Shown here piece by piece: positions 2-11,979 of a stretch of 19,867 nt of DNA. Source of the stretch: Deltaproteobacteria bacterium (GTDB taxonomy: Bacteria; Desulfobacterota; B13-G15); the NCBI GenBank assembly GCA_003646585.1, contig QMLA01000001.1, positions 1-19,867 of the forward strand. Reading direction: 5' to 3'. The first letter of the stretch is position 1. Every line of letters begins with the position of its first letter. The notes beneath the pieces were generated by a model. That model saw only the letters and a program-made list of their open reading frames with translations. It ran no database searches and was not told where the DNA came from. The position numbers and the translations under genes were made by a program.

Positions 2-100
2 AACTTCGAAACCACCGTGATCTTCACCGCTGGCATTGCGGTGATCATGCTCCTTGGAGGCCTCGGGGTTGGGAGAACGCTGGGAAGATCTGATAATTGA
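2..100 (+). CDS. C-terminal tail of an MbhE/MrpA-C-like antiporter subunit (5' end outside window)
   Basis: An open frame enters from the left edge and ends at TGA 98-100, giving 32 visible residues. They are hydrophobic (NFETTVIFTAGIAVIMLLGG, then a short polar tail GRTLGRSDN). The pattern of an asparagine/threonine-rich lead-in, a TVIFTAG segment and a single transmembrane helix matches the end of the small MbhE-like or MrpA C-terminal domain that precedes MrpB in Mrp and Mbh operons. Its place directly before mrpB supports this; the sequence alone is too short to prove it. The frame overlaps the preferred mrpB start by 32 bases. The upstream part, which would show whether this is a split MrpA or a separate subunit, is not in the window. 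Confidence 0.6.
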   Translation, partial: NFETTVIFTAGIAVIMLLGGLGVGRTLGRSDN

Positions 101-527
101 GACGATCTCGCGGATCCTCATACCCTTCCTGCAGCTTTACTCCCTTTATGTGTTGGCCCACGGCCATTCGAGCCCGGGAGGGGGATTTCAGGGGGGCTGC
201 ATCTTTTCGGGTTCCCTGATCCTCATGATGATCGTCTTTGGGCGCGAGGAACTGAGGAGGCGCCTCCCCGACAGACCCCTCTTTTTGCTCTGTGCCTTGG
301 GGGTAGGGATCTTCTTCGCGGGCACTGGAGCCCTGTGCATGGCCTTCGGGGGCGAATTCCTCAACTACGGATTCCTCGACGCGATCCTTCCTCGCGGTCC
401 TGTGATGGCCCGTTATTATGGCATGGCCATCGTCGAGACCGGGGTCCAGATCACGGTGATGGCCGTGATGGTCTCGATCTTTTTGAAACTGCTAGTGGGG
501 GAGGAGGGTTGTTCCAGCAATTGCTGA
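69..527 (+). CDS. mrpB: MrpB/MnhB-family Na+/H+ antiporter subunit
   Basis: Integral membrane subunit of an Mrp/Mbh-type cation/proton antiporter module, about 152 residues. The family signature is clear: a first helix followed by HGHSSPGGGFQGG, the glycine-rich loop typical of MnhB/MrpB. About four transmembrane helices follow: the post-signature helix, LFLLCALGVGIFFAGTGALCM, a short re-entrant region around FLDAILP, and the C-terminal GVQITVMAVMVSIFLKLL. I chose TTG at 69 because GGAGG at 56-60 lies 8 bases before it; the longer TTG start at 54 overlaps that ribosome-binding site. It lies inside the end of the preceding subunit and runs into mrpC, so the operon is translationally coupled. 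In Mrp complexes this subunit is structural and takes part in the ion path; it has no known activity alone. Confidence 0.85.
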   Translation: MGERWEDLIIETISRILIPFLQLYSLYVLAHGHSSPGGGFQGGCIFSGSLILMMIVFGREELRRRLPDRPLFLLCALGVGIFFAGTGALCMAFGGEFLNYGFLDAILPRGPVMARYYGMAIVETGVQITVMAVMVSIFLKLLVGEEGCSSNC

Positions 528-895
528 GCCACTATAACTACTGGTTCTACGCCCTTATGCTGGTCCTTGGCCTCTACGGGATGATCTCCAAGGGAAACCT
601 GGTAAAGAAGCTTGTGGCCATGAACATCTTCCAATGGGCTATAATCTTCTTCTTCCTCTCCATAGGGGCCAAGCGCGGAGGGGACATCCCGATCCTGCCC
701 GAACACGGCCATATGGAGGTCACGGCGAGGGCCTCCGAATTCGTCAATCCCCTGCCCCATGTCCTCATGCTCACGGCCATCGTGGTTGGCGTGGCCACAA
801 CGGGCATAGCCCTCGCCCTCATCCTGCGAATCTATCGCAGGTGGGGGTCCCTGGAGGAGGACGAGATCATCGGGAGACTGAAGGAAAATGGGTGA
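521..895 (+). CDS. mrpC: MrpC/NuoK-like antiporter subunit
   Basis: Small NuoK-like membrane protein of about 124 residues with three transmembrane helices: YWFYALMLVLGLYGMI, then the conserved NLVKKLVAMNIFQWAIIFFFLSIG, and VLMLTAIVVGVATTGIALALIL. The N-L-x-K-K-x-x-x-x-N-I-F-Q pattern and the TAIVVGVATT motif are those of MrpC/MnhC and MbhG. A periplasmic or cytoplasmic loop (GAKRGGDIPILPEHGH) between helices 2 and 3 is typical of the Mrp version. The start is uncertain: TTG 521 overlaps the mrpB stop by 7 bases but is 13 bases from the GGAGG at 503-507, while TTG 509 is only 1 base from it. The gene overlaps the next one by 8 bases. Confidence 0.82.
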   Translation: MLSHYNYWFYALMLVLGLYGMISKGNLVKKLVAMNIFQWAIIFFFLSIGAKRGGDIPILPEHGHMEVTARASEFVNPLPHVLMLTAIVVGVATTGIALALILRIYRRWGSLEEDEIIGRLKENG

Positions 896-2351
896 GCAAC
901 TCCCGGCCCTGATCGTGGCAACTCCCCTGCTCTTCTCCTTTGCCATTTATCTGGCGGGCCTCTGGAGGAGACGCCTCTGTTATCCGCTGTTTCTGACCTC
1001 TCTGGCATTAAGTGCCATCTTCTCCCTCTGGCTCTTCTTCAGGGTGATGATCTTTGGCCCCATCAGTTATCCGATAGGGGGATGGGAACCCCCTTGGGGT
1101 ATCGAATACAGGGTGGATCACCTCTCGGCCTTGATCATCGCTTCGGTGGCGACGGTGGCCCTCCTGGTGGGTCTCTCCTTCAGAGGGAGGGTGGAGGGGG
1201 AGACTGAGCCCTCCAGGTGGTCCCAGATCTACGCCCTTTTCTCCTTACAGCTTTGCGGATTGCTGGGCATGACGGTCACAGGCGATGTATTCAACCTCTA
1301 CGTGCTTTTGGAAATCGCTTCCTTTTCGGCATATGCCATCATCGCCATGGGAGAAAGGGGGGCTGAGTTCTTCGCCTTCCGGTACCTCATCTTCGGGACA
1401 ATAGGGGCCTGTTGCTACCTGCTGGGAGTGGGACACCTCTATATTCTCACCGGATCCCTCAACATGGCCGACCTCTCGAGGTTGCTTCCTCCACTTTATC
1501 CCTCACGGGCCCTCCTGGTCGGTTTTGCCCTGTTGGTGCTGGGGATTGGGATCAAGATGGCCGCTTTTCCCTTACACACCTGGCTTCCCGATGCCTACAC
1601 CGAAGCTCCTTCTTCAGCAAGTGCCTTCCTGGCCCCCCTCTCCACAAAGGTCGCATCCTACGTGTTCCTCAGGATCCTCACGGGGATCTTCAGTCCCCAT
1701 TTCTCCCTCACATCCCTCGGTGATGCCATGGGATGGGTGGCCCTCGCAGGGGCCATCTTCGCCTCGCTCATGGCCCTAGCCCAGCAACGGCTCCGGAGGG
1801 TGCTGTGTTACCTCATAGTTTCCGAAATCTCCTTTCTCCTCATGGGTGTGGCCTCAAGGACCGCCGATGGCCTAAGGGGAGCGGTGCTCCATTTGGTGAA
1901 CGATATGTTCATGATGGGCTGTCTTTTTACGGGAGCTTGTGCAATTCTTCACCAGCTGGGAAGGGAAGAACTTGTAGCCCTCAAAGGGCTTTGCCGCAAG
2001 ATGCCCCTTACATCTGCGGCCCTGCTCCTCGGCGGGCTTTCGATAATAGGAACTCCTCCTCTTTGCGGATTCTTCAGCAAGTGGTACCTGGTCCTGGGGG
2101 CGATCGAGGCGAGGATGTGGCACATCGTCATCGGACTGCTTGTGGGAAGCCTCCTCAACACCATCGTGATCTTCAGGATCCTGGAGAAGGTTTACCTTGG
2201 CGCTGGGCACCAGCACGGGAGGTTGTATTGGGATGGCTTGCCGAAGGGGATGGTTATGGGGCTTGTGATCTTTTCGCTCTCGCTTATCCTTTTGGGCGTC
2301 TTCGCCTCGGAAATAGTGGCAAAGGCGATAGATCCCTGGATACCCCTTTGA
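888..2351 (+). CDS. Antiporter-like proton/cation-translocating subunit, NuoN/MrpD family (pump 1)
   Basis: Polytopic membrane protein of 487 residues, about 14 predicted helices, of the ND2/ND4/ND5 (proton_antipo_M) family. The ion-path residues are all present: Glu142 in the TM5 motif LYVLLEIAS, Lys223 in TM7 (GIKMAAFPLHTWLPDA), Lys254 in TM8 (STKVASYVFLR) and Lys398 in TM12 (CGFFSKWYL). The LPDAYTEAPSSASAFLAPLSTK stretch is the broken-helix signature of the family. It therefore should be a functional translocation channel. ATG 888 overlaps the mrpC stop by 8 bases, with a weak AAGGA 2 bases ahead and GGGAG 11 bases ahead. The paralogue 10 bases downstream and a third one follow in the same operon. 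Assignment as MrpD or as a NuoN/MbhH-type subunit cannot be settled by eye. Confidence 0.85.
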   Translation: MGEQLPALIVATPLLFSFAIYLAGLWRRRLCYPLFLTSLALSAIFSLWLFFRVMIFGPISYPIGGWEPPWGIEYRVDHLSALIIASVATVALLVGLSFRGRVEGETEPSRWSQIYALFSLQLCGLLGMTVTGDVFNLYVLLEIASFSAYAIIAMGERGAEFFAFRYLIFGTIGACCYLLGVGHLYILTGSLNMADLSRLLPPLYPSRALLVGFALLVLGIGIKMAAFPLHTWLPDAYTEAPSSASAFLAPLSTKVASYVFLRILTGIFSPHFSLTSLGDAMGWVALAGAIFASLMALAQQRLRRVLCYLIVSEISFLLMGVASRTADGLRGAVLHLVNDMFMMGCLFTGACAILHQLGREELVALKGLCRKMPLTSAALLLGGLSIIGTPPLCGFFSKWYLVLGAIEARMWHIVIGLLVGSLLNTIVIFRILEKVYLGAGHQHGRLYWDGLPKGMVMGLVIFSLSLILLGVFASEIVAKAIDPWIPL

Positions 2352-2361
2352 GGAGCCTTTG

Positions 2362-3849
2362 ATGGTCCGTGAATCCCTGCTTCCCCTCTTCGAGGTCCTC
2401 CTTCCCCTCTCAGGGGCTATGGGAATCCTCATATTCGGCGAGAGATGGAGGAACCTGCGGGAGGCAACCACCATCGCTGCCTCTATCCTCACGTTTCTAG
2501 GGGCCTTGATGATGCTTGAACCCGTAATGGAGGGAATAAACCTCAGGAGCGAGATCTTCGTGGCCCTGCCCGGCATAAGCTTCCTGCTCAAGGTCGACAT
2601 GATGGGGATGGTATTCCTGCTGCTCACTTCGAGCCTCTGGGTGGTCATCTCGATCTACTCCATCGGTCACATGAGGTCCCTTTGCGAACACGCCCAAACC
2701 AGGTTCTACCTCTGCTTCGCCATGGCCATCTTTGGGGCCGTGGGGGTAGCCTTATCGGGGAACCTGCTCAGCCTTTTTGTCTTTTACGAGATCCTCACGG
2801 TTTCGACCTTCCCCTTGGTCGCCCATCACGAGGATGAAGAGGCCATCCTGGCGGGGAGGAAATATCTGGCTTATTTGCTCGGCGGTGCCTCCCTGGCCTT
2901 TTTTGCCATCCTTTACGGCTGGGAGTCCTTCGGGCGGATGGAGTTTGCCCCTTCGGGTTTCATACCCCTTGGATCCCCCAAGGGGGTGCTTCTGGTTCTG
3001 CTTTTGGCCTTCATCCTGGGGTTTGGCTCCAAGGCCGCCTTGATGCCCCTGCACGAATGGCTGCCCTCTGCCATGGTCGCTCCTACCCCTGTTAGTGCGC
3101 TGTTACATGCTGTGGCTGTGGTGAAAGCAGGGGTGTTCACCTGCCTGAGGGTTCTGCTTTTCGTCTTTGGACCAGAGGTCCTCTCCTCGATGGGAGTATC
3201 GCTGGGATTCGGGATCTTTGTGGCCTTCACCGTGATAGTGGCAAACCTCTTGGCCCTGAGGGAGGATCATTTGAAGAGGCGACTGGCTTTCTCCACCATC
3301 AACAACCTCTCGGTCATCCTGTTGGGAGGGTTTCTGCTTTCTGAAAGTGGCATACGGGGGGCGGTCCTTCACATCCCCTTTCACGGTTTGATGAAGATCA
3401 CGCTGTTCATGTGTGCGGGGACCATTTACGTTCAAACGGGAAAGGAGTACGTAAGCGAACTGGACGGCATAGGGCATCGAATGCCCTTGACCATGGGGGC
3501 CTTTGCCCTCTGCGCACTGGGCCTGTGCGGAATACCTCCCATATGCGGTTTTCTGAGCAAGTGGTTCCTGTGTCTTGGGGCCCTTGAAGTTAAGCAATGG
3601 GTCTTCCTGATGGTATTCCTCCTGAGTTCCTTCCTTGATGCGGCTTACTTCCTTCCCATCGTCTATAGGGCTTTTTTCTGTCCCGGGAAGGACCTCGGAG
3701 GGATCCGGGAGGCCCCTCCGATCATGGCCTTACCCCTTGTGGCCACAGCCATAGGATCCGTCCTCCTTGGCATCTTTCCCAACCTGCTGTTTCACTTCTG
3801 GGACCTCGCCCAAGGGGTGGCGATGCTGGTGATGGGAGGTGGGATGTGA
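2362..3849 (+). CDS. Antiporter-like proton/cation-translocating subunit, NuoM/MrpD family (pump 2)
   Basis: A 495-residue paralogue of the preceding pump. The essential charges are in place: Glu143 (LFVFYEILTVST), Lys224 (FGSKAALMPLHEWLPSA), Lys255 (AVVKAGVFTCLR) and Lys400 (CGFLSKWFL). The PLHEWLPSAMVAPTPVSALLHA segment is more like NuoM and NuoN-type subunits than pump 1. I start at ATG 2362, 6 bases after AGGAG at 2351-2355; an adjacent TTG at 2359 would only add one residue. A GGGAGG at 3834-3839 inside its last codons serves the next gene, whose GTG start overlaps the stop by 4 bases. Role: one ion channel of the Mrp/Mbh-like module; whether it carries H+ or Na+ cannot be read from sequence. 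Confidence 0.85.
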   Translation: MVRESLLPLFEVLLPLSGAMGILIFGERWRNLREATTIAASILTFLGALMMLEPVMEGINLRSEIFVALPGISFLLKVDMMGMVFLLLTSSLWVVISIYSIGHMRSLCEHAQTRFYLCFAMAIFGAVGVALSGNLLSLFVFYEILTVSTFPLVAHHEDEEAILAGRKYLAYLLGGASLAFFAILYGWESFGRMEFAPSGFIPLGSPKGVLLVLLLAFILGFGSKAALMPLHEWLPSAMVAPTPVSALLHAVAVVKAGVFTCLRVLLFVFGPEVLSSMGVSLGFGIFVAFTVIVANLLALREDHLKRRLAFSTINNLSVILLGGFLLSESGIRGAVLHIPFHGLMKITLFMCAGTIYVQTGKEYVSELDGIGHRMPLTMGAFALCALGLCGIPPICGFLSKWFLCLGALEVKQWVFLMVFLLSSFLDAAYFLPIVYRAFFCPGKDLGGIREAPPIMALPLVATAIGSVLLGIFPNLLFHFWDLAQGVAMLVMGGGM

Positions 3850-4052
3850 GGGTGATCCTTCTGATCTTGGTCTTCGTCTTTGGCCTCATGGGGATGCTTG
3901 CTCCCCATGGGCATCCCGAATTTTCCTGGCAAAAGCTCCCCATCTTCGATCTGGTGTTTGGCCTTCTGGGCTGTGCGCTGCTGATCCTCTTCTCGGAGGC
4001 ATTGGGGAAGTACTTTCTCTTCCGCAGGGAGGACTACTATGACGAACCTTAG
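3846..4052 (+). CDS. Unrecognised 68-residue two-helix membrane protein inside the antiporter operon
   Basis: I do not recognise this protein. It has 68 residues and two hydrophobic helices: VILLILVFVFGLMGMLA and DLVFGLLGCALLILFSEALG, joined by a short polar loop with HGHPEFSWQK, and a charged tail ending RREDYYDEP. The short helical hairpin suggests a structural or assembly subunit bound to the pumps. It is very likely a real gene: GTG 3846 overlaps the stop of pump 2 by 4 bases, GGGAGG sits 6 bases upstream, and its end overlaps the start of pump 3 by 14 bases. It does not resemble MrpE, MrpF or MrpG as I know them. The sharp Arg-Arg-Glu-Asp-Tyr-Tyr tail after TM2 predicts a cytoplasmic C-terminus by the positive-inside rule. 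Confidence 0.72.
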   Translation: MRVILLILVFVFGLMGMLAPHGHPEFSWQKLPIFDLVFGLLGCALLILFSEALGKYFLFRREDYYDEP

Positions 4053-5769
4053 TGTGCCTCCCGCCTTCTGGTTCTTCGCCGGTGCGGTGGCGATGCTTGT
4101 TATGCCCAAGAGGGGGCGGCCCCTCCTGAGGTTGGCCATTCCCCCTCTGGCCCTCCTGTCCCTCATGGGACTTCCCGAGGGCAGGCATTTGCAGTTTGAG
4201 CTCCTCGGCTTTGAGCTCTGTCTGGGGCAGGTCGATAAACTCAGCGCCGTTTTCGGATACGTCTTCATCATCATCGCTTTCGCGGGCCTGCTTTACAGCC
4301 TTCATGTGAGGGATGATTCGGAACATTTCTGGGCCATGCTCTATGCCGGATCCGCCATAGGCGCGGTTTTCTCAGGGGACCTCATATCCTTTTACCTCTT
4401 CTGGGAGCTCATGGCCATCTCCTCGGTCTTTCTGATTTGGTCCCACAGGACCCCTCAGGCCATAGCCGCGGGGTTCAGGTATCTGCTGGTCCACCTGTTT
4501 GGAGGGGCACTTCTTTTGGCCGGAATCCTCCTCTGGGTACACCAGAAGGGGACCATTGAGTTCTCCGGACCCCTGGGGGGTGGTGGAGCGAGGTGGTTGA
4601 TCCTTGTGAGCTTCATGCTGAATGCGGCTGTGCCACCCCTTCATCCCTGGCTTCCCGACGCATACCCTGAAGCAAGTCCCACAGGGGCCATCTACCTCAC
4701 CGCCTACACCACAAAGGCCAGCGTTTACGCCCTCTTGAGGGCCTTCCCGGGAGAGGGGATCCTGATGTGGCTTGGAGCGATCATGGCCCTCTATGGGGTA
4801 ATCTGGGCGATCCTTCAGAACGACATAAGGCGCCTGTTGGCCTATCACATAGTAAGCCAGGTGGGATACATGGTCTGCGGGGTTGGCATAGGGACGGCGC
4901 TGTCCATGAGTGGATCGGCTGCCCATGCCTTCACCCACATCCTCTATAAGGCCCTCCTGTTCATGGGAACGGGTGCCCTCATCCATGCTACAGGCATGCG
5001 GAAGATGACCCAATTTCAGGGAAGGGGACTCTTCAGGCTGTTACCGGAGGCCTTCCTCTTTTACATGATCGGGGCCTTCTCCATCTCCTCGGTTCCCCTC
5101 TTCAGCGGTTACATCAGCAAACCGATGATCCTTGAGGCTGCCCTCCATGAGGACCAAGAGGTGGTCTATTTCCTGCTGCACCTCGCTTCCATCGGCACCT
5201 GGCTGTGTACGGCCTTCAAGCTCCCTTACTATACCTGGTTTGGCGAAAAAACCCCCAGAGGAACCCTGCGAATCGATCCCCTTCCCCTCAGCATGAAACT
5301 CGGCATGGCCTTTCTGAGCTCCCTCTGCGTGCTGCTGGGGATCTACCCCTCCCTGCTTTACAGGCTCCTCCCCTACCCCTTTGAGTTTTCCCCATACAGC
5401 GCCAGACACCTAATCGATACCCTGCAGATGCTTTCGGCCTCAGCCCTATCGGTATGGCTGCTCCTTGGAATCCTCAAACCCCATGAGGGGATCACCCTGG
5501 ACACGGATTGGCTCTACCGCAAAGGAGCGAGGGAATTCGTGGCCTTCTGCGGATGGCTCTACGATCTGAGGCACCAAATCCAGGGCAGGATGAGGACCCT
5601 TGTTAAGGCCCTAGTGCTTCTGAGCTCGAATCCCCTTGAGATCCCAAGGCTCCTTAAGGGGGTAGCCCCGAGACCCTATGACCCGGACCGCCATAGATTA
5701 CCGGTCGGAATTGGGGTCCTGCTTTCTGTGCTCTCCTTCTTTTTGCTTTCTTTGGTCCTCTTCCTCTGA
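4039..5769 (+). CDS. Large antiporter-like subunit, NuoL/MrpA-N/MrpD family (pump 3), with C-terminal lateral-helix-like extension
   Basis: Membrane protein of 576 residues, the longest of the three pumps. It keeps Glu123 (LFWELMAIS), Lys226 (TTKASVYALLR), Lys304 (HILYKALLFMG) and Lys361 (SGYISKPM), but the TM7 lysine is replaced by Asn195 in FMLNAAVPPLHPWLPDAYPE. From memory this N-A-A-x-P-P-L-H pattern belongs to a subfamily often annotated Na+/H+ antiporter subunit D, so it may be ancestral rather than a mutation. After the last core helix comes a soluble/amphipathic stretch (DTDWLYRKGAREFV) of about 80 residues, then a final helix near 555-576; this resembles the lateral helix arm of NuoL in miniature. 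ATG 4039 has AGGGAGG 6 bases upstream and overlaps the small gene by 14 bases. It ends the operon, 2 bases short of a convergent gene. Confidence 0.83.
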   Translation: MTNLSVPPAFWFFAGAVAMLVMPKRGRPLLRLAIPPLALLSLMGLPEGRHLQFELLGFELCLGQVDKLSAVFGYVFIIIAFAGLLYSLHVRDDSEHFWAMLYAGSAIGAVFSGDLISFYLFWELMAISSVFLIWSHRTPQAIAAGFRYLLVHLFGGALLLAGILLWVHQKGTIEFSGPLGGGGARWLILVSFMLNAAVPPLHPWLPDAYPEASPTGAIYLTAYTTKASVYALLRAFPGEGILMWLGAIMALYGVIWAILQNDIRRLLAYHIVSQVGYMVCGVGIGTALSMSGSAAHAFTHILYKALLFMGTGALIHATGMRKMTQFQGRGLFRLLPEAFLFYMIGAFSISSVPLFSGYISKPMILEAALHEDQEVVYFLLHLASIGTWLCTAFKLPYYTWFGEKTPRGTLRIDPLPLSMKLGMAFLSSLCVLLGIYPSLLYRLLPYPFEFSPYSARHLIDTLQMLSASALSVWLLLGILKPHEGITLDTDWLYRKGAREFVAFCGWLYDLRHQIQGRMRTLVKALVLLSSNPLEIPRLLKGVAPRPYDPDRHRLPVGIGVLLSVLSFFLLSLVLFL

Positions 5770-5771
5770 AC

Positions 5772-7037
5772 TCAGATCCGCCTGCTCATGCAGTATTCCC
5801 TTAAGCGATTCAACCCCGTGAAGAATTCCCTCATCATCCCGCTGACCACGTACATCCCCCTTCGGGTGACCCTGAAGCCCCCTTGGGTGGCCTCAATTGT
5901 CCCGAGAAGCCTCAACACCAGCAGTTCGATCCCGAGCTCCTCTTCGGGATCCCTCCCAAAGAGCTCCCTGTGGACTTCCCTCCTCAGGCTCATGCCGAAA
6001 AACTGCGTCAAAAGGTGGTAATGTAAAAGCTCCTTGCGGGTGAGTCTTTTGGACATGGCTATGGGGAATTGCCCCGAGTTGACCCTCTGCAAATAATTGG
6101 TCAAATCGAAGTAATTCGCGTAAAACACCCCTCCATAAAGTCCAACGGAACCGCTCCCTATGGCAATGTATTCCGGATACTCGATTATGTACTCGTCGAT
6201 CATGTGATCCCCGCGGGAAAAGCACCATACCGTTGAAGGGACATAACCATCCTGCATCATCTCATCGAGGATCATGCGGTAGAAGACCCTCTCTCTGCCG
6301 TGGTCTATCTTGGAGAAGCGCCGCTCTATGGCCTTATGCTTGCGAGGGGCAGGCATGAGGGGATAGAAGGTCACCTGGTCCACTCCGAGCTCCTTCACAA
6401 TGCGGATGTCCTCCTTGAGGTCCTCGGGCTTTTGGGTTGGGAAATTGTAGAGGAGATCTATGTTGAAGGTGTCAAAGACCCCCTGGGCGAGCTTTATCTT
6501 CTCAATGGCCTCAAGCCCGTTGTGCGAAAACCGCCCCATCGCCCTCAGCATCCTGTCGTCGAAGCTCTGGACACCCATGGATAGCCTTCTCACCCCAAGG
6601 TCCTTCAACAACCTCACGTTCTCAGGGGTGATGTCCCTCGGGTTGGTCTCAAGGGATATCTCATCGATGGGTTGTCTGAGTCTCAGGTATTCCAAAAAAG
6701 AGCTGAGTTCATCCATCATGACCGTAGGGGTTCCTCCTCCCAGGTAAACGCTTCTGAAGGAAAACCCCCTGTCGATGTAAAGATCCAGTTCCTTCCTCAG
6801 TCCCTTGAAGTACTCCCTGGCGAGTTCCTCATCCAGGGGATAACGGTTAAAGGAACAGTAGGCGCAGAGTTGCCTGCAGAAAGGGATATGCACATAAAGG
6901 GCTACCTTCTTACCAAGAGGCCCCTTGGAAAGGAATCCCCTTTCAATGCCCCTCTTCAACTCCAGGAACTTCCTCCCCTCTAACCTCACGAATCGAATGA
7001 GCATTGCCTCGCCCAAACTTCGGAGGGCTTCCCTCAT
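5772..7037 (-). CDS. Radical SAM enzyme of the HemN/HemW coproporphyrinogen oxidase-like family
   Basis: Cytoplasmic 4Fe-4S radical SAM protein of about 421 residues. The cluster motif is Cys54-x3-Cys58-x2-Cys61 (HIPFCRQLCAYCSF), followed by GGGTP at 100-104, the ETNP motif at 130-133 and GVQSF at 155-159, the order seen in HemN, HemW and HutW/ChuW proteins. The fourth cysteine that HemN has after CxxC is absent (Ser-Phe), which fits HemW-type members. The C-terminal third (about 315-421) looks like the HemN C-terminal helical domain. Possible roles are oxygen-independent heme synthesis, heme insertion (HemW) or heme breakdown (HutW); I cannot choose. Start: ATG 7035-7037, which overlaps the thyX stop as ATGA and has GAGGTGGGG upstream. 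A frame reading 58 residues further is only thyX read in another frame. Confidence 0.82.
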   Translation of the reverse strand: MREALRSLGEAMLIRFVRLEGRKFLELKRGIERGFLSKGPLGKKVALYVHIPFCRQLCAYCSFNRYPLDEELAREYFKGLRKELDLYIDRGFSFRSVYLGGGTPTVMMDELSSFLEYLRLRQPIDEISLETNPRDITPENVRLLKDLGVRRLSMGVQSFDDRMLRAMGRFSHNGLEAIEKIKLAQGVFDTFNIDLLYNFPTQKPEDLKEDIRIVKELGVDQVTFYPLMPAPRKHKAIERRFSKIDHGRERVFYRMILDEMMQDGYVPSTVWCFSRGDHMIDEYIIEYPEYIAIGSGSVGLYGGVFYANYFDLTNYLQRVNSGQFPIAMSKRLTRKELLHYHLLTQFFGMSLRREVHRELFGRDPEEELGIELLVLRLLGTIEATQGGFRVTRRGMYVVSGMMREFFTGLNRLREYCMSRRI

Positions 7038-7750
7038 AACCCCACCTCTTCCCTTCTGGGATAACGGCCACATCCCTTTTCGCCCTCGGGACAGTAACCC
7101 AGGGCCTCGCACTTGGGACCCGCCTTCCGGAAGACGCAGGGAAGGACCCGCCTGCAGATCTCGAGCATCTTCCAGGCCAGCGCCCTTATCTCCCATTGAG
7201 CCCTTGAGCAACAGCGCTGCCCGAAAAAGTGTAGGAGCTCCCTGCAGTTCATGGTCACCACGATTTTGGTCTCAACGGCCTGGGGAAGGAGGAACCGGAC
7301 GTCCTCCATTGCCCTCTCCCCTTCCACTCCCCTCTGGGAGAGCAGGGTCATGAGCCTGCGGTACGCCTTCCGTATTTCCCCCATGATCCTCTCAAACTCC
7401 TCCTTGGCCTGGGGATCCTGGGCTATGGAAGGGGGAATGATATAGCGGAAGTTGCTCATATCGACATAACGCTGGCTCTGTTGGGAATAGGAAGCGATTC
7501 TGTGCCTGACGAGCTGATGGGAGCAGACCCTGGATATCCCTTCGATGGCAAAGGTGAACTTCACGTGTTCGAGGGGACTCAGGTGTCCCCGGGAAATCAT
7601 CGCGGCAATGAAGTCCTCCTTCTGTTCGTCAGGGGGTTCGGGCAGCTCGGGGGCGAAGGAAGAGGAATAACATTGCCTGTAGCTCCTCCACAGGAGGGCT
7701 AGGGGGTTATCCGAGACATCCAGGAGCACGACCCTCAATTTGACTTCCAC
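7034..7750 (-). CDS. thyX: Flavin-dependent thymidylate synthase ThyX
   Basis: Makes dTMP from dUMP with FAD, NADPH and methylene-tetrahydrofolate, the alternative to ThyA. The defining ThyX motif RHR-x7-S is at Arg82-Ser92 (RHRIASYSQQS), and the helices around it fit the family. At 238 residues it is at the long end because of a C-terminal tail with four spaced cysteines (Cys205, 214, 220, 227; core GYCPEGEKGCG). From memory a similar GPxC...CPEG...C tail occurs in several anaerobe ThyX proteins; its function is unknown to me. GTG 7748-7750 is the start. A strong Shine-Dalgarno (GGGAGGTGAT, 7763-7772) sits 16 bases before it, unusually far. It is first in a two-gene minus-strand unit with the HemN/HemW-like gene. 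Confidence 0.93.
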   Translation of the reverse strand: MEVKLRVVLLDVSDNPLALLWRSYRQCYSSSFAPELPEPPDEQKEDFIAAMISRGHLSPLEHVKFTFAIEGISRVCSHQLVRHRIASYSQQSQRYVDMSNFRYIIPPSIAQDPQAKEEFERIMGEIRKAYRRLMTLLSQRGVEGERAMEDVRFLLPQAVETKIVVTMNCRELLHFFGQRCCSRAQWEIRALAWKMLEICRRVLPCVFRKAGPKCEALGYCPEGEKGCGRYPRREEVGL

Positions 7751-7759
7751 TGTAGTGGT

Positions 7760-7787
7760 TTTATCACCTCCCTCTGCGAGGGGTCAA
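7760..7787 (-). promoter_or_regulatory. Candidate thyX promoter (-35 TTGACC, -10 GATAAA)
   Basis: On the minus strand TTGACC (7782-7787) and GATAAA (7760-7765) are 16 bases apart. The -10 box ends only 9 bases before the GTG start, so transcription would begin about 2 bases before the start codon. The strong Shine-Dalgarno-like GGGAGGTGAT would then lie inside the promoter, not in the mRNA. Read by eye; unproven. Confidence 0.4.
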
Positions 7788-7795
7788 CCCGAGCG

Positions 7796-7825
7796 TTGAC
7801 AAGGCTTCTTTCGGCGTGTTAGGTT
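7796..7825 (+). promoter_or_regulatory. Candidate sigma70-type promoter for the MBL-fold hydrolase
   Basis: A consensus -35 TTGACA (7796-7801), an 18-base spacer and a weak -10 TAGGTT (7820-7825) point toward the hydrolase, predicting a leader of about 16 bases. It lies back to back with the thyX promoter, with 8 bases between the two -35 boxes, so one regulator bound here could affect both genes. Confidence 0.4.
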
Positions 7826-7847
7826 TGCCTTCCTCTTGCCTTTGGGG

Positions 7848-8510
7848 ATGAAGCTCCTTGAAGGGGTTTACATATATCCCTGGCTCAATCCGCAGTACAA
7901 CAACTCCAACAGCTATCTTTTGACCGGGGAGGTCGTCGCCCTCATAGATCCCGGGCACCTGAACTTCATCCCCGAACTCCTCGGACAAATGCGCAGGGAT
8001 GGTTTTTACGGAAAGGACATAACCCTGCTCATCTGCACCCACCTTCACCCCGACCACTTTGAAGGAGTGGAATTTTTCAAGACGAGCCTTCTCGCGATAC
8101 ACCGTGAGGAAGAGGCGGCCCTGCGGGATTACTATGCTCCTTATCTCTATCAACCTTCGGGAACCCGGGTCCCTTCAAAAGAACCCGATATCTACCTGCG
8201 GGAGGGAAAGCTCTGGCTGGGGAAGGACCTTTGGCAGGTGATCCATACCCCCGGGCATTCTCCGGGGTCCATCTGCCTTTACAACCCCAGCAAAAAGGTC
8301 CTCATCACCGGTGATGTGGTCTTTTACCAGGGGGTCGGGAGGACCGATTTCATGGGCGATCCCCAGGCCCTTGCCCATAGCATAAGGCGCCTCATGGGAT
8401 TGGACGTGGAGTACCTCCTTCCCGGGCATGGACAAATTCTTGTGGGCAAGGAAAGTGTGAAGAGGAACTTCCAGCTAATAGAGAGGATGGTCCTCCCCCT
8501 GCTCCTCTAA
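7848..8510 (+). CDS. Metallo-beta-lactamase-fold hydrolase (glyoxalase II-like)
   Basis: Cytoplasmic two-metal hydrolase of 220 residues. All metal ligands of the fold are visible: His65, His67, Asp69, His70 (THLHPDHFEG), His137 (HTPGHSPGS), Asp156 (ITGDVVF) and His194 (LPGHG). This fits the glyoxalase-II/YcbL-type subgroup that cleaves thioesters or related substrates, but the substrate cannot be read. There is no signal peptide, so a secreted beta-lactamase is unlikely. ATG 7848 is preferred because MKLLEGVYIYPWL is a normal start for the family; TTG codons at 7836 and 7842 are in frame and no start has a good ribosome-binding site (only GGGG directly before the ATG). It stands alone, with its stop overlapping the convergent fabG stop by 4 bases. 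Confidence 0.87.
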   Translation: MKLLEGVYIYPWLNPQYNNSNSYLLTGEVVALIDPGHLNFIPELLGQMRRDGFYGKDITLLICTHLHPDHFEGVEFFKTSLLAIHREEEAALRDYYAPYLYQPSGTRVPSKEPDIYLREGKLWLGKDLWQVIHTPGHSPGSICLYNPSKKVLITGDVVFYQGVGRTDFMGDPQALAHSIRRLMGLDVEYLLPGHGQILVGKESVKRNFQLIERMVLPLLL

Positions 8511-9250
8511 ATCCCGATGGTCAGACCGCCGTCGATGACGAAGACCTGCCCGGTTATGTAGTCCGATTCGGGACTGGCCAGAAAGAGGTGCAAGTAAGCC
8601 ACCTCTTCGGGCTTTCCCAACCGACCCAAGGGTATCCGCTTAAGCGCCTCGGCCTTCATCTCTTCCGGTAAACCCTCTGTCATGGCCGTCTCGATGATCC
8701 CCGGGGCGACGCAGTTGACCCTGATCCCTGCCCTGGCGTACTCGAGGGCGAGGGTCCTGGTGAGGGCCACAACCCCAGCCTTTGAGGCCGCGTAGTTGGC
8801 CTGCCCTATGTTCCCCCTTATGGCAACCGAAGAAGTGTTCACTATCTTACCGTAGCGCTGTCTCCTCATCGGCCTGAAGGCAGCCTTACAGAAGAGGAAG
8901 GTTCCCCAGAGGTTCACCCTGAGCACTTCCTCCCATTCTTCGGCTGACATCTTCACAGCGAGGTTGTCGCGAGAGAGCCCAGCGTTGTTGATGAGGATAT
9001 GCAGGGCCCCGAAGGTCTCCACCGTCTCCCTCACTGCCCTTTCGACCTCCTCTGGCCGGGAGACATCCGCCTTTATGGCCAAGGCCTCTCCCCCTTCGGA
9101 TCGGATATCATGGAGGAGGGCCTCCAGCAACTCTTCCCTCCTGGCAACGAGGGCCACCCTGGCCCCCTCGCGGGCAAAGAGCCGTGCACAAGCAGCCCCA
9201 ATGCCACTGGATGCTCCAGTTATAATGGCAACCCTGTCCTTAAGCCTCAT
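8507..9250 (-). CDS. fabG: FabG-type short-chain dehydrogenase/reductase
   Basis: NAD(P)H-dependent SDR of 247 residues, the usual FabG length. Motifs: TGASSGIG cofactor loop at 11-18, NNAG at 88-91, catalytic Asn113, Ser140, Tyr153 and Lys157 (ANYAASKAG), PG motif in NCVAPGIIETAM and the FabG-like C-terminus ITGQVFVIDGGL. Arg residues after the second strand (VARREE) suggest NADPH preference. It most resembles 3-oxoacyl-ACP reductase of fatty-acid synthesis, but no other fab gene or acyl carrier protein is adjacent, so it could be another SDR with a different keto substrate. Start ATG 9248-9250 has GGAGG 5 bases upstream; a 20-residue longer frame has no ribosome-binding site and would run into murI. 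It is divergent from murI across 42 bases. Confidence 0.85.
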   Translation of the reverse strand: MRLKDRVAIITGASSGIGAACARLFAREGARVALVARREELLEALLHDIRSEGGEALAIKADVSRPEEVERAVRETVETFGALHILINNAGLSRDNLAVKMSAEEWEEVLRVNLWGTFLFCKAAFRPMRRQRYGKIVNTSSVAIRGNIGQANYAASKAGVVALTRTLALEYARAGIRVNCVAPGIIETAMTEGLPEEMKAEALKRIPLGRLGKPEEVAYLHLFLASPESDYITGQVFVIDGGLTIGI

Positions 9251-9278
9251 CCCCACCTCCCAGGATAGCGGTGTCGGC

Positions 9279-9286
9279 GTTATAAT
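9279..9286. promoter_or_regulatory. Overlapping divergent -10 boxes for murI (+) and fabG (-)
   Basis: GTTATAAT reads as a perfect TATAAT (9281-9286) on the plus strand and as TATAAC (9284-9279) on the minus strand. The plus box ends 6 bases before the murI ATG at 9293, predicting transcription to start at or next to the A of ATG. The minus box would give fabG a leader of roughly 22 bases containing its GGAGG. Neither strand has a convincing -35 at 16-18 bases. Confidence 0.45.
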
Positions 9287-9292
9287 GCACCC

Positions 9293-10096
9293 ATGCCGAA
9301 AAGTTCTCAACCCATAGGGATCTTCGATTCAGGGGTGGGGGGACTGACGGTCCTCAAGGAGATCTCAAGGCTTCTGCCATCCGAAGACCTGATCTATCTC
9401 GGTGACACGGCGAGGGTCCCCTATGGTACCCGCTCCCCAAAGACCGTCATCCGCTACTCGCAAAGGAACGCGGAATTCCTCATGAGGCTGGGGATAAAAC
9501 TGCTGGTTGTGGCCTGCAACACCTCCTCTGCGGTGAGCTTGGAAGTCCTGAGGGCCCAGAATGCGGTGCCGGTGGTTGGAGTTATAGAACCCGGGGCCAG
9601 GAAGGCGGTGGAACTCACCACCAAGGGTCTCATAGGGGTCATAGGGACAGAAGCCACGATTCGCAGCGGTGCCTATCAGAAGGCCATAAAGCGCTGGGCC
9701 AAAAATCCCGTCAGGGTCGTCTCCAGACCCTGCCCCCTCTTCGTGCCCCTTGTCGAGGAGGGATGGCTTGAGGACCCTATTACCAAGGAAGTGGCCAGGC
9801 GCTATCTCACCCCCCTAAAAGGGAAAGGGATCGATGTGCTCGTTTTGGGATGCACCCATTATCCCCTGCTTGAGGGGACGATTCGGGAGGTGATGGGGCC
9901 TGAAGTAAAGCTCGTCAATTCGGCTTCCGAGACGGCACTGGAGGTGAAGGGAATACTGGAATCCTTGGGCATCAGGAAATCCTTCGGGGAAGGCAGGCGG
10001 AGGTTCTTCGTCACCGATGGTCCCGAGAAATTCAAGCACCTGGGCAAACTATTTCTGGGGGAGCTTCCCGGAGAGGTAGACGAGATCGATTTATAA
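9293..10096 (+). CDS. murI: Glutamate racemase MurI
   Basis: Converts L-glutamate to the D-glutamate needed for the peptidoglycan stem peptide; cytoplasmic, cofactor-independent. The 267-residue length is normal. Both catalytic cysteines are present: Cys75 in VVACNTSSA and Cys187 in LGCTHYPLL with His189. The N-terminal IGIFDSGVGGLTVLKE (Asp12, Ser13) and the YLGDTARVPYG motif are diagnostic. ATG 9293 is the only sensible start, yet there is no Shine-Dalgarno before it (CGTTATAATGCACCC), and a perfect -10 box is at the leaderless distance. The last two codons TTA TAA share a palindrome with the stop of the convergent gene. As an essential wall gene beside lpxC and pal it belongs to an envelope-biogenesis island. 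Confidence 0.95.
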   Translation: MPKSSQPIGIFDSGVGGLTVLKEISRLLPSEDLIYLGDTARVPYGTRSPKTVIRYSQRNAEFLMRLGIKLLVVACNTSSAVSLEVLRAQNAVPVVGVIEPGARKAVELTTKGLIGVIGTEATIRSGAYQKAIKRWAKNPVRVVSRPCPLFVPLVEEGWLEDPITKEVARRYLTPLKGKGIDVLVLGCTHYPLLEGTIREVMGPEVKLVNSASETALEVKGILESLGIRKSFGEGRRRFFVTDGPEKFKHLGKLFLGELPGEVDEIDL

Positions 10097-11344
10097 TCCC
10101 AGGTCTTCTTTGACCTGCTTGATGAGGGCTATGTTCTCCCGGTGGCCCGTCATGAAGGCCCTTATTTTGCCGCGCAAGGGACGGTTCAAGAGATACAGAT
10201 CCCCTATGAGATCCAGTACCTTATGTCTCACCATCTCGTCCGGAAAACGCAACTCCGTGTTTATGGGGCCGCGCTCGTCAAGGAGCACCACATTGTGGAG
10301 ATGACCACCCCCTGCAAGGCCCATCCTGCTCAGGCTCTCCACATCCTTTAAGAAGGCGAAGGTCCTGGCAGGGGCTATTTCCTCCCTGAAACCCTCGGGA
10401 CCATCGAGGACGAAGTGAAGGCGCTGTTCCCCAATGGGCGGGGGATACCTGAGGACGAACTCCACTTCCAGCCTGTCGGAGGGCTCAAGGGTAATGACCC
10501 TTAAGCCGTTTCTCACCTCATATCTCTTGCGTATCCTTATCTCCTCCACGCCTTCCTTCTGCTCCTGCAGTCCCACCTCGTCCAAGAGCTTACAGAATTC
10601 CAGGGCCGAGCCGTCCATGACCGGCACTTCGCGGTTTACCTTCACCAGGAGGTTCGTGATCCCATAAGCGTGCAGCGTGGCCATGAGATGCTCGATGGTC
10701 CTTATGTACACCCCATCCTTTCCCAGCGAAGTGGCAAAATCGGTTGAGGCCACATGGTCGACCAGTGCCGGGATCGCCACATCCTCGGCCAGGTCATAGA
10801 ACAATATGCCGGTGTTCGGAGGCTGGGGCAGGAGGAGGAGGCCGGTCTTTTGTCCCGAGTGAAGCCCGGTACCATACAGCACAGCACTTTTCCTTATCGT
10901 CCTCTGGGGAGAGGTGGTCCGCTCGGGCCCCCTGCCCAGAAGGGCCTTGGGAAAACGGTCCCTCTGGGCATCACCGCCTGGGGGCCTCCTCAGGGCCCTC
11001 TCCACGGTGAGCAGCAGGGCCTCTATTGAGAGGGGTTTCTCCAAAAAGTCTATGGCCCCCATCTTCATGGCCTTTACCGCCGTGGCCACGGTGGCATGTC
11101 CCGAGATCATTATCACCGGACACTCGCTGTCCACTTCCTTTATGCGCTTGAGGACCTCGAGTCCGTCCATATCCGGCATCCAGACGTCCAACAGGGCCAC
11201 ATCGGGGCGCTCGCGCATGAACACCTCCAGGGCCTCCCTGCCGTCCTTCGCCACAACGCAACCGTAGCCCTCGTCCTCCAGGGCCCCGGCCAGGGCCTTG
11301 ACCACGGCCTCCTCGTCGTCCACTATGAGCACCTTCGCCTTCAT
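10091..11344 (-). CDS. lpxC: Response-regulator receiver domain fused to UDP-3-O-acyl-N-acetylglucosamine deacetylase (REC-LpxC)
   Basis: One uninterrupted frame of 417 residues. Residues about 2-120 are a NtrX-like receiver domain with every phosphorylation residue: Asp9, Asp10, phospho-acceptor Asp53 (LLDVWMPDMDG), Ser81 (MISGHA) and Lys103 (EKP). A linker of about 26 residues, rich in Pro, Gly and Arg, leads to a full LpxC from about 147: GTGLHSG, Glu218-His219 (TIEHLM), MDGSA, ARTFAF, His374 and Asp378 (RHKVLD) and His401 (TGH). So the zinc ligands and catalytic bases are intact. LpxC removes the acetyl group from UDP-acyl-GlcNAc, the committed step of lipid A synthesis. No ATG, GTG or TTG lies in frame in the linker, so a separate LpxC is not made from an obvious start. 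ATG 11342-11344 has no Shine-Dalgarno; 43 upstream frame residues are promoter DNA. Fusion is seen; control by a kinase is inferred. Confidence 0.93.
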   Translation of the reverse strand: MKAKVLIVDDEEAVVKALAGALEDEGYGCVVAKDGREALEVFMRERPDVALLDVWMPDMDGLEVLKRIKEVDSECPVIMISGHATVATAVKAMKMGAIDFLEKPLSIEALLLTVERALRRPPGGDAQRDRFPKALLGRGPERTTSPQRTIRKSAVLYGTGLHSGQKTGLLLLPQPPNTGILFYDLAEDVAIPALVDHVASTDFATSLGKDGVYIRTIEHLMATLHAYGITNLLVKVNREVPVMDGSALEFCKLLDEVGLQEQKEGVEEIRIRKRYEVRNGLRVITLEPSDRLEVEFVLRYPPPIGEQRLHFVLDGPEGFREEIAPARTFAFLKDVESLSRMGLAGGGHLHNVVLLDERGPINTELRFPDEMVRHKVLDLIGDLYLLNRPLRGKIRAFMTGHRENIALIKQVKEDLGL

Positions 11345-11353
11345 CCAGAAAGG

Positions 11354-11383
11354 ATTGTATCCGAGAAAGGCCCCCTGAGCCAA
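11354..11383 (-). promoter_or_regulatory. Candidate rec-lpxC promoter (-35 TTGGCT, -10 TACAAT)
   Basis: On the minus strand TTGGCT (11378-11383), an 18-base spacer and TACAAT (11354-11359) precede the ATG by 9 bases. The predicted transcript would carry only 2-3 untranslated bases, consistent with the lack of a ribosome-binding site in CCTTTCTGG before the ATG. Read by eye. Confidence 0.45.
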
Positions 11384-11384
11384 G

Positions 11385-11414
11385 TTTACAAACCCGGGGG
11401 GATTTGCATAAAAT
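11385..11414 (+). promoter_or_regulatory. Candidate pal-cpoB promoter (-35 TTTACA, -10 TAAAAT)
   Basis: TTTACA (11385-11390) and TAAAAT (11409-11414), each 5 of 6 to consensus, are 18 bases apart. Predicted leader is about 20 bases and contains GGGGAG before the pal ATG. The -35 box is a single base away from that of the divergent rec-lpxC promoter, so the two promoters probably compete for polymerase or share a regulator. Confidence 0.5.
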
Positions 11415-11439
11415 GTCGTCACACTTTCGGGGAGACGGG

Positions 11440-11979
11440 ATGATGAAAAGGTGGGCTCTTCTGTTGGTAACATTGGCGCTGTTTTGCTGCGCCAGAAAGC
11501 ACGTGATCGCCCCTCCCCCTTCCCCGGTGGCCGAGGAGGAGGTGGTAACCGAGCGGGAGGTGGTCAAGCCGAAGGGGGAAGCCGAAGGCGCAGCCCTTGA
11601 ACCGGTAAAGTATCCGGGTATCGAAGGAGAGGTATGGAGGACTCCCCTCCTCAAACCCATTTACTTTGACTTCGACCGCTACGACCTCAGGCCCGATGCG
11701 AAGGAGACCCTCAGGGAGAACGCAAAAGTGCTCAAGGAGAATCCCACCTGGAAGATCCTGATCGAGGGGCATTGTGACGAAAGGGGAAGCAACGAATACA
11801 ACCTCGCCCTCGGCGAGAAACGGGCCAGGGCTGCCATGCAGTATTTGATCAAGCTGGGCATAGATCCCGACAGGCTCTCCATAATTAGCTACGGTGAGGA
11901 AAGGCCGGTGGACCCCAGGCATTGCGAGGAGGCCTGGGCGAAGAACCGGCGTTGTGAGTTTGTGGTGATCGCGAAATGA
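11440..11979 (+). CDS. pal: Peptidoglycan-associated lipoprotein Pal (OmpA-family C-terminal domain)
   Basis: Outer-membrane lipoprotein of the Tol-Pal system, 179 residues, that ties the outer membrane to peptidoglycan. N-terminal signal MMKRWALLLVTLALFCC with Cys16/Cys17; the lipobox is not canonical (Phe or Cys at -1). Residues about 20-70 are a Pro/Glu-rich tether. The OmpA-like domain begins near 73 (IYFDFDRYDLRP) and carries the diaminopimelate-binding residues in EGHCDERGSNEYNLALGEKRA (Asp113, Asn121, Arg128) and the closing AWAKNRRCEF. I start at ATG 11440, 5 bases after GGGGAG (11429-11434); ATG 11443 is equally possible, and a 12-residue longer frame has no support. The cpoB start overlaps its stop as ATGA. 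tolQ, tolR, tolA and tolB, which usually precede pal, are not here. Confidence 0.9.
   Translation: MMKRWALLLVTLALFCCARKHVIAPPPSPVAEEEVVTEREVVKPKGEAEGAALEPVKYPGIEGEVWRTPLLKPIYFDFDRYDLRPDAKETLRENAKVLKENPTWKILIEGHCDERGSNEYNLALGEKRARAAMQYLIKLGIDPDRLSIISYGEERPVDPRHCEEAWAKNRRCEFVVIAK

What the first reader, a model, noticed from the sequence alone, without database searches (positions are those of the whole stretch)
10091..11344. LpxC fused to an intact, phosphorylatable receiver domain: direct two-component control of lipid A synthesis?
Seen: one frame encodes a NtrX-like receiver (Asp9, Asp10, Asp53, Ser81, Lys103 all present) joined by a Pro/Gly/Arg-rich linker to a complete LpxC (Glu218, His219, His374, Asp378, His401). 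Established: in E. coli LpxC level is set by FtsH-dependent proteolysis, and receiver domains usually drive DNA-binding or cyclic-nucleotide outputs. Inference: phosphorylation of Asp53 by a NtrY-like kinase gates deacetylase activity, stability or oligomeric state, tying LPS output to an envelope or nitrogen/redox signal. The linker contains no in-frame ATG, GTG or TTG, so the fusion is probably the only form. I do not know of an experimental description of such an enzyme, though homologues may exist in databases.
Basis: partly seen in the sequence, partly recalled or inferred. Interest (0 to 1): 0.85.

Follow-up and report, generated by a model that had tools for sequence, protein, structure and literature searches.

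The report
NtrX receiver captured by LpxC
In this bacterium and many relatives, the enzyme that commits the cell to making lipopolysaccharide carries the phosphorylation switch of a signalling protein called NtrX, so a sensor kinase could throttle outer-membrane synthesis directly rather than through gene expression.

Summary
It belongs to a large family: 90 of 395 phylum genomes have the fusion (89 read), and 348 of 348 complete receivers among 360 listed relatives keep all five phosphorylation residues. The receiver is NtrX's. Relatives form a series: separate lpxC and ntrX near DUF4390-ntrY; whole NtrX fused to LpxC with its sigma54 AAA+ part dead (0 of 20, against 14 of 14 intact stand-alone NtrX); receiver-LpxC without AAA+, as here. 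NtrY directly precedes the fusion in 30 of 91 distinct fusion genomes or records; in 52 others its surroundings hold NtrX only once. A stand-alone NtrX is found in 14 of 14 genomes with separate lpxC but 1 of 26 fusion genomes tested. Best reading: NtrY phosphorylates the receiver and so sets LpxC activity or stability. The effect and its sign are untested, and NtrY was not found in the window's own 68%-complete bin. Ten paper searches showed no such fusion.

The parts
10988..11344 (-). NtrX-type receiver domain, residues 1-119 of the fusion (PF00072 match 5-114)
11186..11188 (-). codon of phosphoacceptor Asp53
   Evidence: Asp in 348 of 348 complete receivers among 360 listed relatives
10910..10987 (-). 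linker, residues 120-145; pLDDT under 50 at 121-135 and 137-141, no in-frame start codon
10094..10909 (-). LpxC catalytic domain, residues 146-417, metal/catalytic residues present, ends 16 residues after His401
10091..10093 (-). stop codon; lies within the last codons of the convergent murI
11345..11439 (.). stretch between the fusion and the divergent pal-like gene; no kinase gene beside the fusion in this window
9293..10096 (+). murI-like racemase gene (PF01177), convergent neighbour; also beside the fusion in family f2 of the same order
11440..11979 (+). pal-like OmpA-family gene (PF00691), divergent neighbour

Best explanation
It is an LpxC whose regulatory domain is a captured NtrX receiver. 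A whole NtrX was once joined in frame to LpxC in the ancestor of this family; its sigma54-activating AAA+ and HTH parts then decayed (long form) or were deleted (short form, as here), while the receiver was kept intact. The membrane kinase/phosphatase NtrY, which in nearly all fusion genomes tested has no stand-alone NtrX left to serve, phosphorylates and dephosphorylates Asp53, and the phosphorylation state sets LpxC output post-translationally, by activity or stability. Shown here: architecture, intact sites, NtrX kinship of the receiver, kinase proximity in a third of cases, absence of stand-alone NtrX, decay of the transcription motifs. Inferred: the order of events, phosphotransfer from NtrY, the coupling to LpxC, and its sign; by analogy with Rhodobacter, where loss of NtrYX raises lpxC transcript and LPS, I expect the phosphorylated state to lower LPS output, with only slight confidence (about 0.55).
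For: Asp9, Asp10, Asp53, Ser/Thr81, Lys103 intact in 348 of 348 complete receivers among 360 listed relatives and in every complete receiver of 92 loci (71 short, 19 long; one pair, L002 and L136, is the same gene). Fused receivers plus 14 stand-alone NtrX lie on one side of the receiver tree against 25 other receivers, SH-aLRT 94 (below the starred level); fused = one clade not rejected, p-AU 0.718. Asp24, Trp55, Gly82, His83, Glu102 are shared by fused receivers and stand-alone NtrX and rare in 21 other receivers. Fused LpxC are one clade (99); fused and separate pairs split with 100 in a joint receiver+LpxC tree. NtrY ends -28 to 276 bp upstream on the same strand in 30 of 91 distinct fusion genomes or records (the 276 is to a receiver cut short). 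In 52 others whose NtrY surroundings were fetched, NtrX sits beside NtrY only in G284. NtrX ortholog at 59-76% identity in 14 of 14 separate-lpxC genomes but only 1 of 26 fusion genomes; 16 of the 25 without it are rated 93% complete or more. 9 of 9 other genomes of the order have a strong NtrY (E 1.8e-177 or lower) with no receiver gene beside it; DUF4390 precedes it in 7 of 9. Long forms: GAFTGA-like loop 0 of 20 loci and 0 of 94 database proteins, Walker-B DE 0 of 20 and 0 of 94, against 14 of 14 for both in stand-alone NtrX. Published: loss of NtrYX in R. sphaeroides raises lpxC transcript 8.8-fold and LPS (PMC7240162, passages); the DUF4390 protein PlrP appears to hold back the phosphatase activity of an NtrY-family kinase (PMC13001219, abstract and passages).
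Against: No biochemistry. NtrY was not found in the window's own bin (best kinase match E 2.4e-36), nor in four other fusion genomes, G245, G362, G373, G392. G284 keeps NtrY-NtrX and has a fusion elsewhere. G047, G208 and G252 carry a stand-alone lpxC as well. In 20 fetched loci with separate lpxC, 7 also lack NtrX directly beside NtrY, so an NtrY without a neighbouring NtrX is not special by itself; the genome-wide count is the stronger test, but it covers 40 chosen genomes and is not corrected for kinship. One control genome has a second-best, paralogous match as high as 51% identity. The model gives no firm receiver-LpxC contact: linker confidence is low and no inter-domain error was returned.
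Confidence: 0.75

Rival explanations
1. The receiver is a stability switch: phosphorylation exposes or hides the fusion to a protease such as FtsH or Lon, in place of a C-terminal degron; catalysis itself is unaffected. (A special case of the best explanation.)
For: Fused LpxC end 14-23 residues after the catalytic His (88 distinct), whereas separate LpxC of the phylum have 22-48, median 45 (42 distinct, 1 of them at 23 or less); in E. coli a C-terminal degron is what FtsH recognises (PMC12444477, passages).
Against: LpxC of other phyla also mostly lack the tail (median 19 residues, 31 of 45 distinct at 23 or less), so its absence may be old and not an exchange. I did not search for degrons or proteases.
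Confidence: 0.3
2. The receiver is a phosphate-dependent dimerisation or localisation handle that places LpxC near the membrane kinase NtrY, with little change in specific activity.
For: NtrC-family receivers often act through dimerisation (recalled); linkers of 23-64 residues would allow tethering; NtrY has HAMP, PAS and an NtrY_N region.
Against: No contact or localisation evidence; the model gives no reliable domain contact.
Confidence: 0.2
3. The receiver is a passive relic of a gene fusion, kept only because it helps folding or expression of LpxC.
For: No functional data exist for the fusion; the AAA+ part of the long forms evidently was allowed to decay.
Against: Beside that decay the receiver keeps every phosphorylation residue in 348 of 348 proteins, its identity between relatives equals that of LpxC (52.8 and 53.6% in short forms), and NtrX signature residues stay.
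Confidence: 0.05
4. Two separate functions on one chain: the receiver drains phosphate from NtrY or another kinase, and LpxC is unregulated.
For: Receivers can act as phosphate sinks (recalled); an NtrY-family kinase is reported to be a phosphatase too (PMC13001219, passages).
Against: Stand-alone NtrX, the partner that a sink would serve, was not found in 25 of 26 fusion genomes tested; joining to one specific enzyme in a single clade is then hard to explain.
Confidence: 0.1

Closest known systems
NtrY-NtrX two-component systems with a DUF4390/PlrP partner (Rhodobacter, Caulobacter; Bordetella PlrSR)
   Same: Same kinase family (PF19312 NtrY_N, HAMP, PAS, HisKA, HATPase), DUF4390 gene upstream, same receiver type; NtrYX is reported to lower lpxC expression in Rhodobacter and Caulobacter (passages).
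   Different: There NtrX is a DNA-binding regulator, and in Rhodobacter no NtrX site was found at lpxC; here the receiver is part of LpxC itself and the transcription modules are dead or gone.
Response regulators with enzyme outputs (CheB, PleD types)
   Same: Receiver in front of an enzyme, joined by a linker; the window's receiver matches those profiles, over the receiver only.
   Different: The output is a biosynthetic zinc deacetylase of the lipid A pathway; no such output appeared in the listings of the paper searches.
LpxC-FabZ bifunctional enzyme of Bacteroidetes, Chlorobi, Verrucomicrobia
   Same: A fusion that includes LpxC (PMC3087551, passage).
   Different: Joined to another metabolic enzyme; the window protein scores 198 bits against a cut-off of 465, over the LpxC part only.
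Desulfovibrio vulgaris DVU2934, a response regulator whose single DNA target is lpxC
   Same: Two-component control of lpxC in a sulfate reducer; lpxC lies directly upstream of the orthologous operon in S. fumaroxidans (PMC3333781, passages). That D. vulgaris belongs to the same wider group is recalled.
   Different: Transcriptional, separate proteins, operon with an HD-GYP regulator; whether DVU2934 is NtrX was not tested.

Membership tests
LpxC (UDP-3-O-acyl-GlcNAc deacetylase) | Equivalog profile over curated cut-off | tested here: met
   TIGR00325 252.8 bits, cut-off 187.25; PF03331 residues 147-411
LpxC (UDP-3-O-acyl-GlcNAc deacetylase) | Zinc and catalytic residues | tested here: met
   Glu218, His219, His374, Asp378, His401 invariant in 51 aligned sequences; their roles are recalled
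LpxC (UDP-3-O-acyl-GlcNAc deacetylase) | Deacetylase activity | not testable with these tools
   Sole LpxC found in the bin; LpxB also present
Response regulator receiver | PF00072 match and the five phosphorylation residues | tested here: met
Response regulator receiver | Phosphorylation by a histidine kinase | not testable with these tools
   Only gene context
NtrX (sigma54-type response regulator) | Full-length NtrX equivalog | tested here: not met
   NF051870 127.7 bits against 600, residues 3-119 only; but a stand-alone NtrX of the phylum also scores below that cut-off (511)
NtrX (sigma54-type response regulator) | Sigma54 AAA+ domain and Fis-type HTH | tested here: not met
   No such match in the window protein; AAA+ motifs degenerate in long relatives
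NtrX (descent of the receiver only) | Receiver groups with NtrX receivers | tested here: met
   SH-aLRT 94, below the starred level, 120 columns; shared signature residues
NtrY partner kinase in the same genome | True NtrY present | tested here: inconclusive
   Not found in G000, 68% complete; present in 9 of 9 other genomes of the order
LpxC-FabZ bifunctional enzyme | Equivalog profile over cut-off | tested here: not met
   NF009667 198.2 against 465

The most novel reading that the evidence does not exclude
A complete envelope-to-enzyme wire: a periplasmic DUF4390 protein and the kinase NtrY read the envelope and set LpxC directly through a captured NtrX receiver, with transcription cut out of the loop. 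If so, control of lipid A synthesis would be an old core job of NtrYX, seen in relatives as separate genes, as a dead transcription factor fused to LpxC, and as receiver-LpxC.
Probability: 0.5. Interest if true: 0.9.

Novelty: new variant of a known kind. Interest (0 to 1): 0.8.

Why it matters
[quoted passage not shown] Here a two-component signal appears hard-wired to the enzyme itself, with relatives that show a transcription factor turning into an enzyme's regulatory domain. It turns a loose question (what does NtrYX do for the envelope) into an assay on one protein.

Tried and rejected
Chance juxtaposition, frameshift or assembly join: rejected, since the 120 listed relatives all carry both domains and 90 loci from many genomes show the same order. 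Nitrogen or redox control: no support found; not excluded. A kinase gene beside the fusion in the window: none. First idea that rows matching only LpxC had another N-terminal domain: wrong, those read are receiver fusions too, short or long, apart from three stand-alone LpxC (G249, G320, G383). NtrX equivalog cut-off as a test for NtrX: not usable, because a stand-alone NtrX of the phylum also falls below it (511 against 600); replaced by the ortholog search. A Walker-B pattern was badly written (0 even for stand-alone NtrX); corrected. Tail lengths held pattern errors; redone by alignment. A count of 31 NtrY-fusion pairs held one gene twice (L002 is G221's gene); 30 are distinct. Direction long to short is inferred: in the LpxC-only tree the long rows need 3 changes and several short lineages branch first, but in the joint tree long forms are one clade (83, not starred) and one clade of short forms is not rejected (log-likelihood 4.98 higher, p-AU 0.639).

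Rows dropped: L157 and L161 (receiver cut) from receiver counts; L179 and L196 (LpxC cut) and L107 (the window again) from tail counts; L003, L177, L178 from the joint tree; 44 of 72 short forms went into the LpxC and receiver trees. The fusion ORF of G318 was listed but not read. NtrY surroundings of G201, G224, G287 and G305 were not fetched; the downstream flank was under 600 bases in L328, L329 and L334. The genome search could not be centred on another phylum, so spread outside the phylum was judged only from names.
Full report
What is there. The frame at 10091-11344 lies on the minus strand: 417 residues, ATG at 11344, stop at 10091-10093. Pfam finds a receiver at residues 5-114 and LpxC at 147-411; the LpxC half passes the NCBI equivalog cut-off. 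The linker has no in-frame start codon between codons 114 and 155. The gene faces a pal-like gene upstream (divergent) and a murI-like gene downstream (convergent); no kinase gene lies beside it. The genome held is a 1.39 Mb bin in 284 contigs, 68% complete; one LpxC, one LpxB and 18 receiver matches, the fusion included, were found.

How widespread. A protein search scored 8000 candidates; 7779 passed, and the 120 listed all carry PF00072 and PF03331. In 395 genomes drawn from the phylum, 93 matched at E 1e-60; 3 of these (G249, G320, G383) are stand-alone LpxC, leaving 90 fusion genomes. I read 90 fusion loci from 89 of them (G392 has two; G318 was not read) and two titled contigs, L002 and L003: 92 rows, 72 short and 20 long. 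L002 proved to be the same gene as that of G221. Names given by sources include Deltaproteobacteria, Thermodesulfobacteriota and Candidatus Binatia, with a few other labels. Of 67 fusion genomes also scanned for every LpxC, 64 show the fusion as the only LpxC; G047, G208 and G252 have a stand-alone copy too.

Two architectures. Short forms, as in the window, have a linker of 23-64 residues between the matched parts. Long forms (mostly 700-780 aa) have the receiver, a sigma54-type AAA+ domain with its lid, and then LpxC; the best NCBI match of their front part is NtrX, below its cut-off, in the three scanned. In the long forms the AAA+ looks dead for transcription: a GAFTGA-like loop in 0 of 20 loci and 0 of 94 database proteins, the Walker-B Asp-Glu in 0 of 20 and 0 of 94, and Lys for the sensor-II Arg wherever the motif could be read (18 of 20, 84 of 94), while Walker A remains in 20 of 20. 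No HTH_8 match was seen in the four long forms scanned, though a stand-alone NtrX has one. All 14 stand-alone NtrX from the phylum keep the loop (9 GAFTGA, 4 GSFTGA, 1 GVFTEA), Walker-B Asp-Glu and sensor-II Arg.

The receiver is under constraint. All five phosphorylation residues are intact in 348 of 348 complete receivers among 360 listed database proteins, and in all 71 short and 19 long complete receivers read from loci. Receiver and LpxC halves diverge at the same pace (mean pairwise identity 52.8 and 53.6% in short forms). Residues that set NtrX apart from 21 other receivers of these genomes, such as Asp24, Trp55, Gly82-His83 and Glu102, are kept in the fusions.

Descent. In the LpxC tree all fused LpxC form one clade (SH-aLRT 99), apart from the stand-alone LpxC of the phylum. 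In the receiver tree the fused receivers and the stand-alone NtrX lie together against other receivers (94, below the starred level), and a single fused clade is not rejected. In a joint tree of receiver plus LpxC the fused proteins split from the separate pairs with 100; long forms are one clade (83) and one clade of short forms is allowed (p-AU 0.639). The simplest history is one fusion of a whole NtrX to LpxC, then decay of the AAA+ in one branch and its deletion in the other. In favour, the linkers of short forms in families f2 and f74 look by eye like the helix that joins receiver and AAA+ in NtrX. Against, several short lineages branch early in the LpxC tree.

The kinase. A NtrY-like kinase (NtrY_N, HAMP, PAS, HisKA, HATPase in the two scanned) ends -28 to 276 bp before the receiver, same strand, in 30 of 91 distinct fusion genomes or records (29 of 90 sampled genomes, and L003). 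In the window's order, 9 of 9 other genomes have a strong NtrY (E 1.8e-177 or lower); DUF4390 precedes it in 7 of 9, smpB follows in 7 of 9, and no receiver gene is beside it in any. Over 52 fusion genomes with NtrY elsewhere and its surroundings fetched, a stand-alone NtrX lies next to NtrY only in G284; G132 has a weak receiver match at the edge of the stretch. The remaining 9 are G000, G245, G362, G373, G392 (no NtrY found) and G201, G224, G287, G305 (not fetched). In 20 separate-lpxC loci, chosen because lpxC and ntrY shared a contig, NtrX is beside NtrY in 13; the common order is lpxC, DUF4390, ntrY, ntrX. Over the 72 genomes for which searches list both places, separate lpxC and ntrY start within 6 kb of each other in 40.

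The sharpest test. With a stand-alone NtrX as query, 14 of 14 separate-lpxC genomes gave an ortholog at 59-76% identity (four of them away from ntrY), but of 26 fusion genomes only G284 did (56%, E 1.3e-162). The other 25 gave at best E 2.2e-136 and 48% identity where shown, the level of other sigma54 regulators; 16 of the 25 are rated 93% complete or more. Fisher p is 6e-10, which ignores kinship and my choice of genomes: a strong pattern, not 40 independent trials.

Tail. Fused LpxC end 14-23 residues after the catalytic His (88 distinct sequences); separate LpxC of the phylum have 22-48, median 45 (42 distinct); LpxC of other phyla have a median of 19 (45 distinct). In E. coli the degron read by FtsH is at the C-terminus. 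Whether the fusions exchanged one control handle for another, or never had the tail, is open.

Model. AlphaFold2 on an alignment of 51 sequences gives mean pLDDT 87.1 and pTM 0.83, with the linker under 50 at 121-135 and 137-141. It does not establish a contact between the domains.

How it most likely works. NtrY, with its DUF4390 partner, senses an envelope condition; in Bordetella the DUF4390 protein PlrP is reported as a third component that appears to hold back the kinase's phosphatase activity (PMC13001219, abstract and passages). NtrY sets the phosphorylation of Asp53, and this sets LpxC output. In Rhodobacter, loss of NtrYX raises lpxC transcript 8.8-fold and LPS, without an NtrX site found at lpxC (PMC7240162, passages); a 2025 review reports NtrYX as an inhibitor of lpxC transcription in two alphaproteobacteria, and the word 'fused' does not occur in it (PMC12444477, passages). 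So the expected sign is that phosphorylation lowers output, but the other sign is nearly as likely. Phosphotransfer, coupling and sign are inferred, not shown.

Against. The window's own bin lacks a recognisable NtrY, perhaps because it is incomplete; its sister genus G217 has both NtrY and the fusion, the latter cut by a contig end. Four more fusion genomes lack NtrY at E 1e-60, one of them (G392) in a single contig that is rated 75% complete. G284 keeps NtrY, NtrX and a fusion, and three genomes keep a stand-alone lpxC.

Novelty. Enzyme-output response regulators and NtrYX effects on the envelope are known; the closest published item met here is a D. vulgaris regulator, DVU2934, that binds the lpxC gene (PMC3333781, passages; repeated in PMC4114195, passage). 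Ten searches of open-access full text listed no report of a receiver or NtrX fused to LpxC; subscription papers are mostly not held there. I rate it a new variant of a known kind, with high interest because the series is clear and the test is simple. Mending the NtrY count from 31 to 30 did not change my odds.

Noticed in passing
L177 4516-5832 (-) and L178 6762-8078 (-): G252 and G208 (one genus) have a stand-alone lpxC beside ntrY plus a very divergent receiver-LpxC elsewhere (stem 1.27 in the LpxC tree; GLMSG where the window has GLHSG): a possible second, specialised LpxC.
   Followed up: partly
L320 2548-3918 (-), L129: G284 keeps ntrY followed by a stand-alone ntrX and also has a receiver-LpxC fusion elsewhere, while G244 of the same family has a stand-alone LpxC: perhaps horizontal gain of the fusion.
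   Followed up: partly
L152 6072-7490 (+), L156 6254-7684 (-): G392 holds two receiver-LpxC fusions in one genome and no NtrY at E 1e-60.
   Followed up: no
L297-L316: In many genomes with separate lpxC the gene sits directly before (DUF4390-)ntrY, often with ntrX next, so the lpxC/NtrYX link may be older than the fusion.
   Followed up: partly
L153-L176 long fusions: An AAA+ domain that keeps Walker A but lacks GAFTGA, Walker-B Glu and sensor-II Arg, between receiver and LpxC; what it does is unknown.
   Followed up: partly
L247-L255, L319, L332-L349: smpB follows ntrY in many fusion genomes of several families.
   Followed up: no
L157 765-2075 (-), L161 6815-8704 (-): Fusion ORFs with the N-terminal receiver cut off or out of frame; assembly error or real break not decided, left as is.
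   Followed up: no
window 54-5769: Na+/H+ antiporter or complex-I-like gene set (MnhB at 54-527, Proton_antipo_M at 4039-5769, and similar frames between).
   Followed up: no
window 5772-9310: Radical SAM gene, thyX-like gene, a metallo-beta-lactamase-fold gene and an SDR dehydrogenase between the antiporter genes and murI.
   Followed up: no
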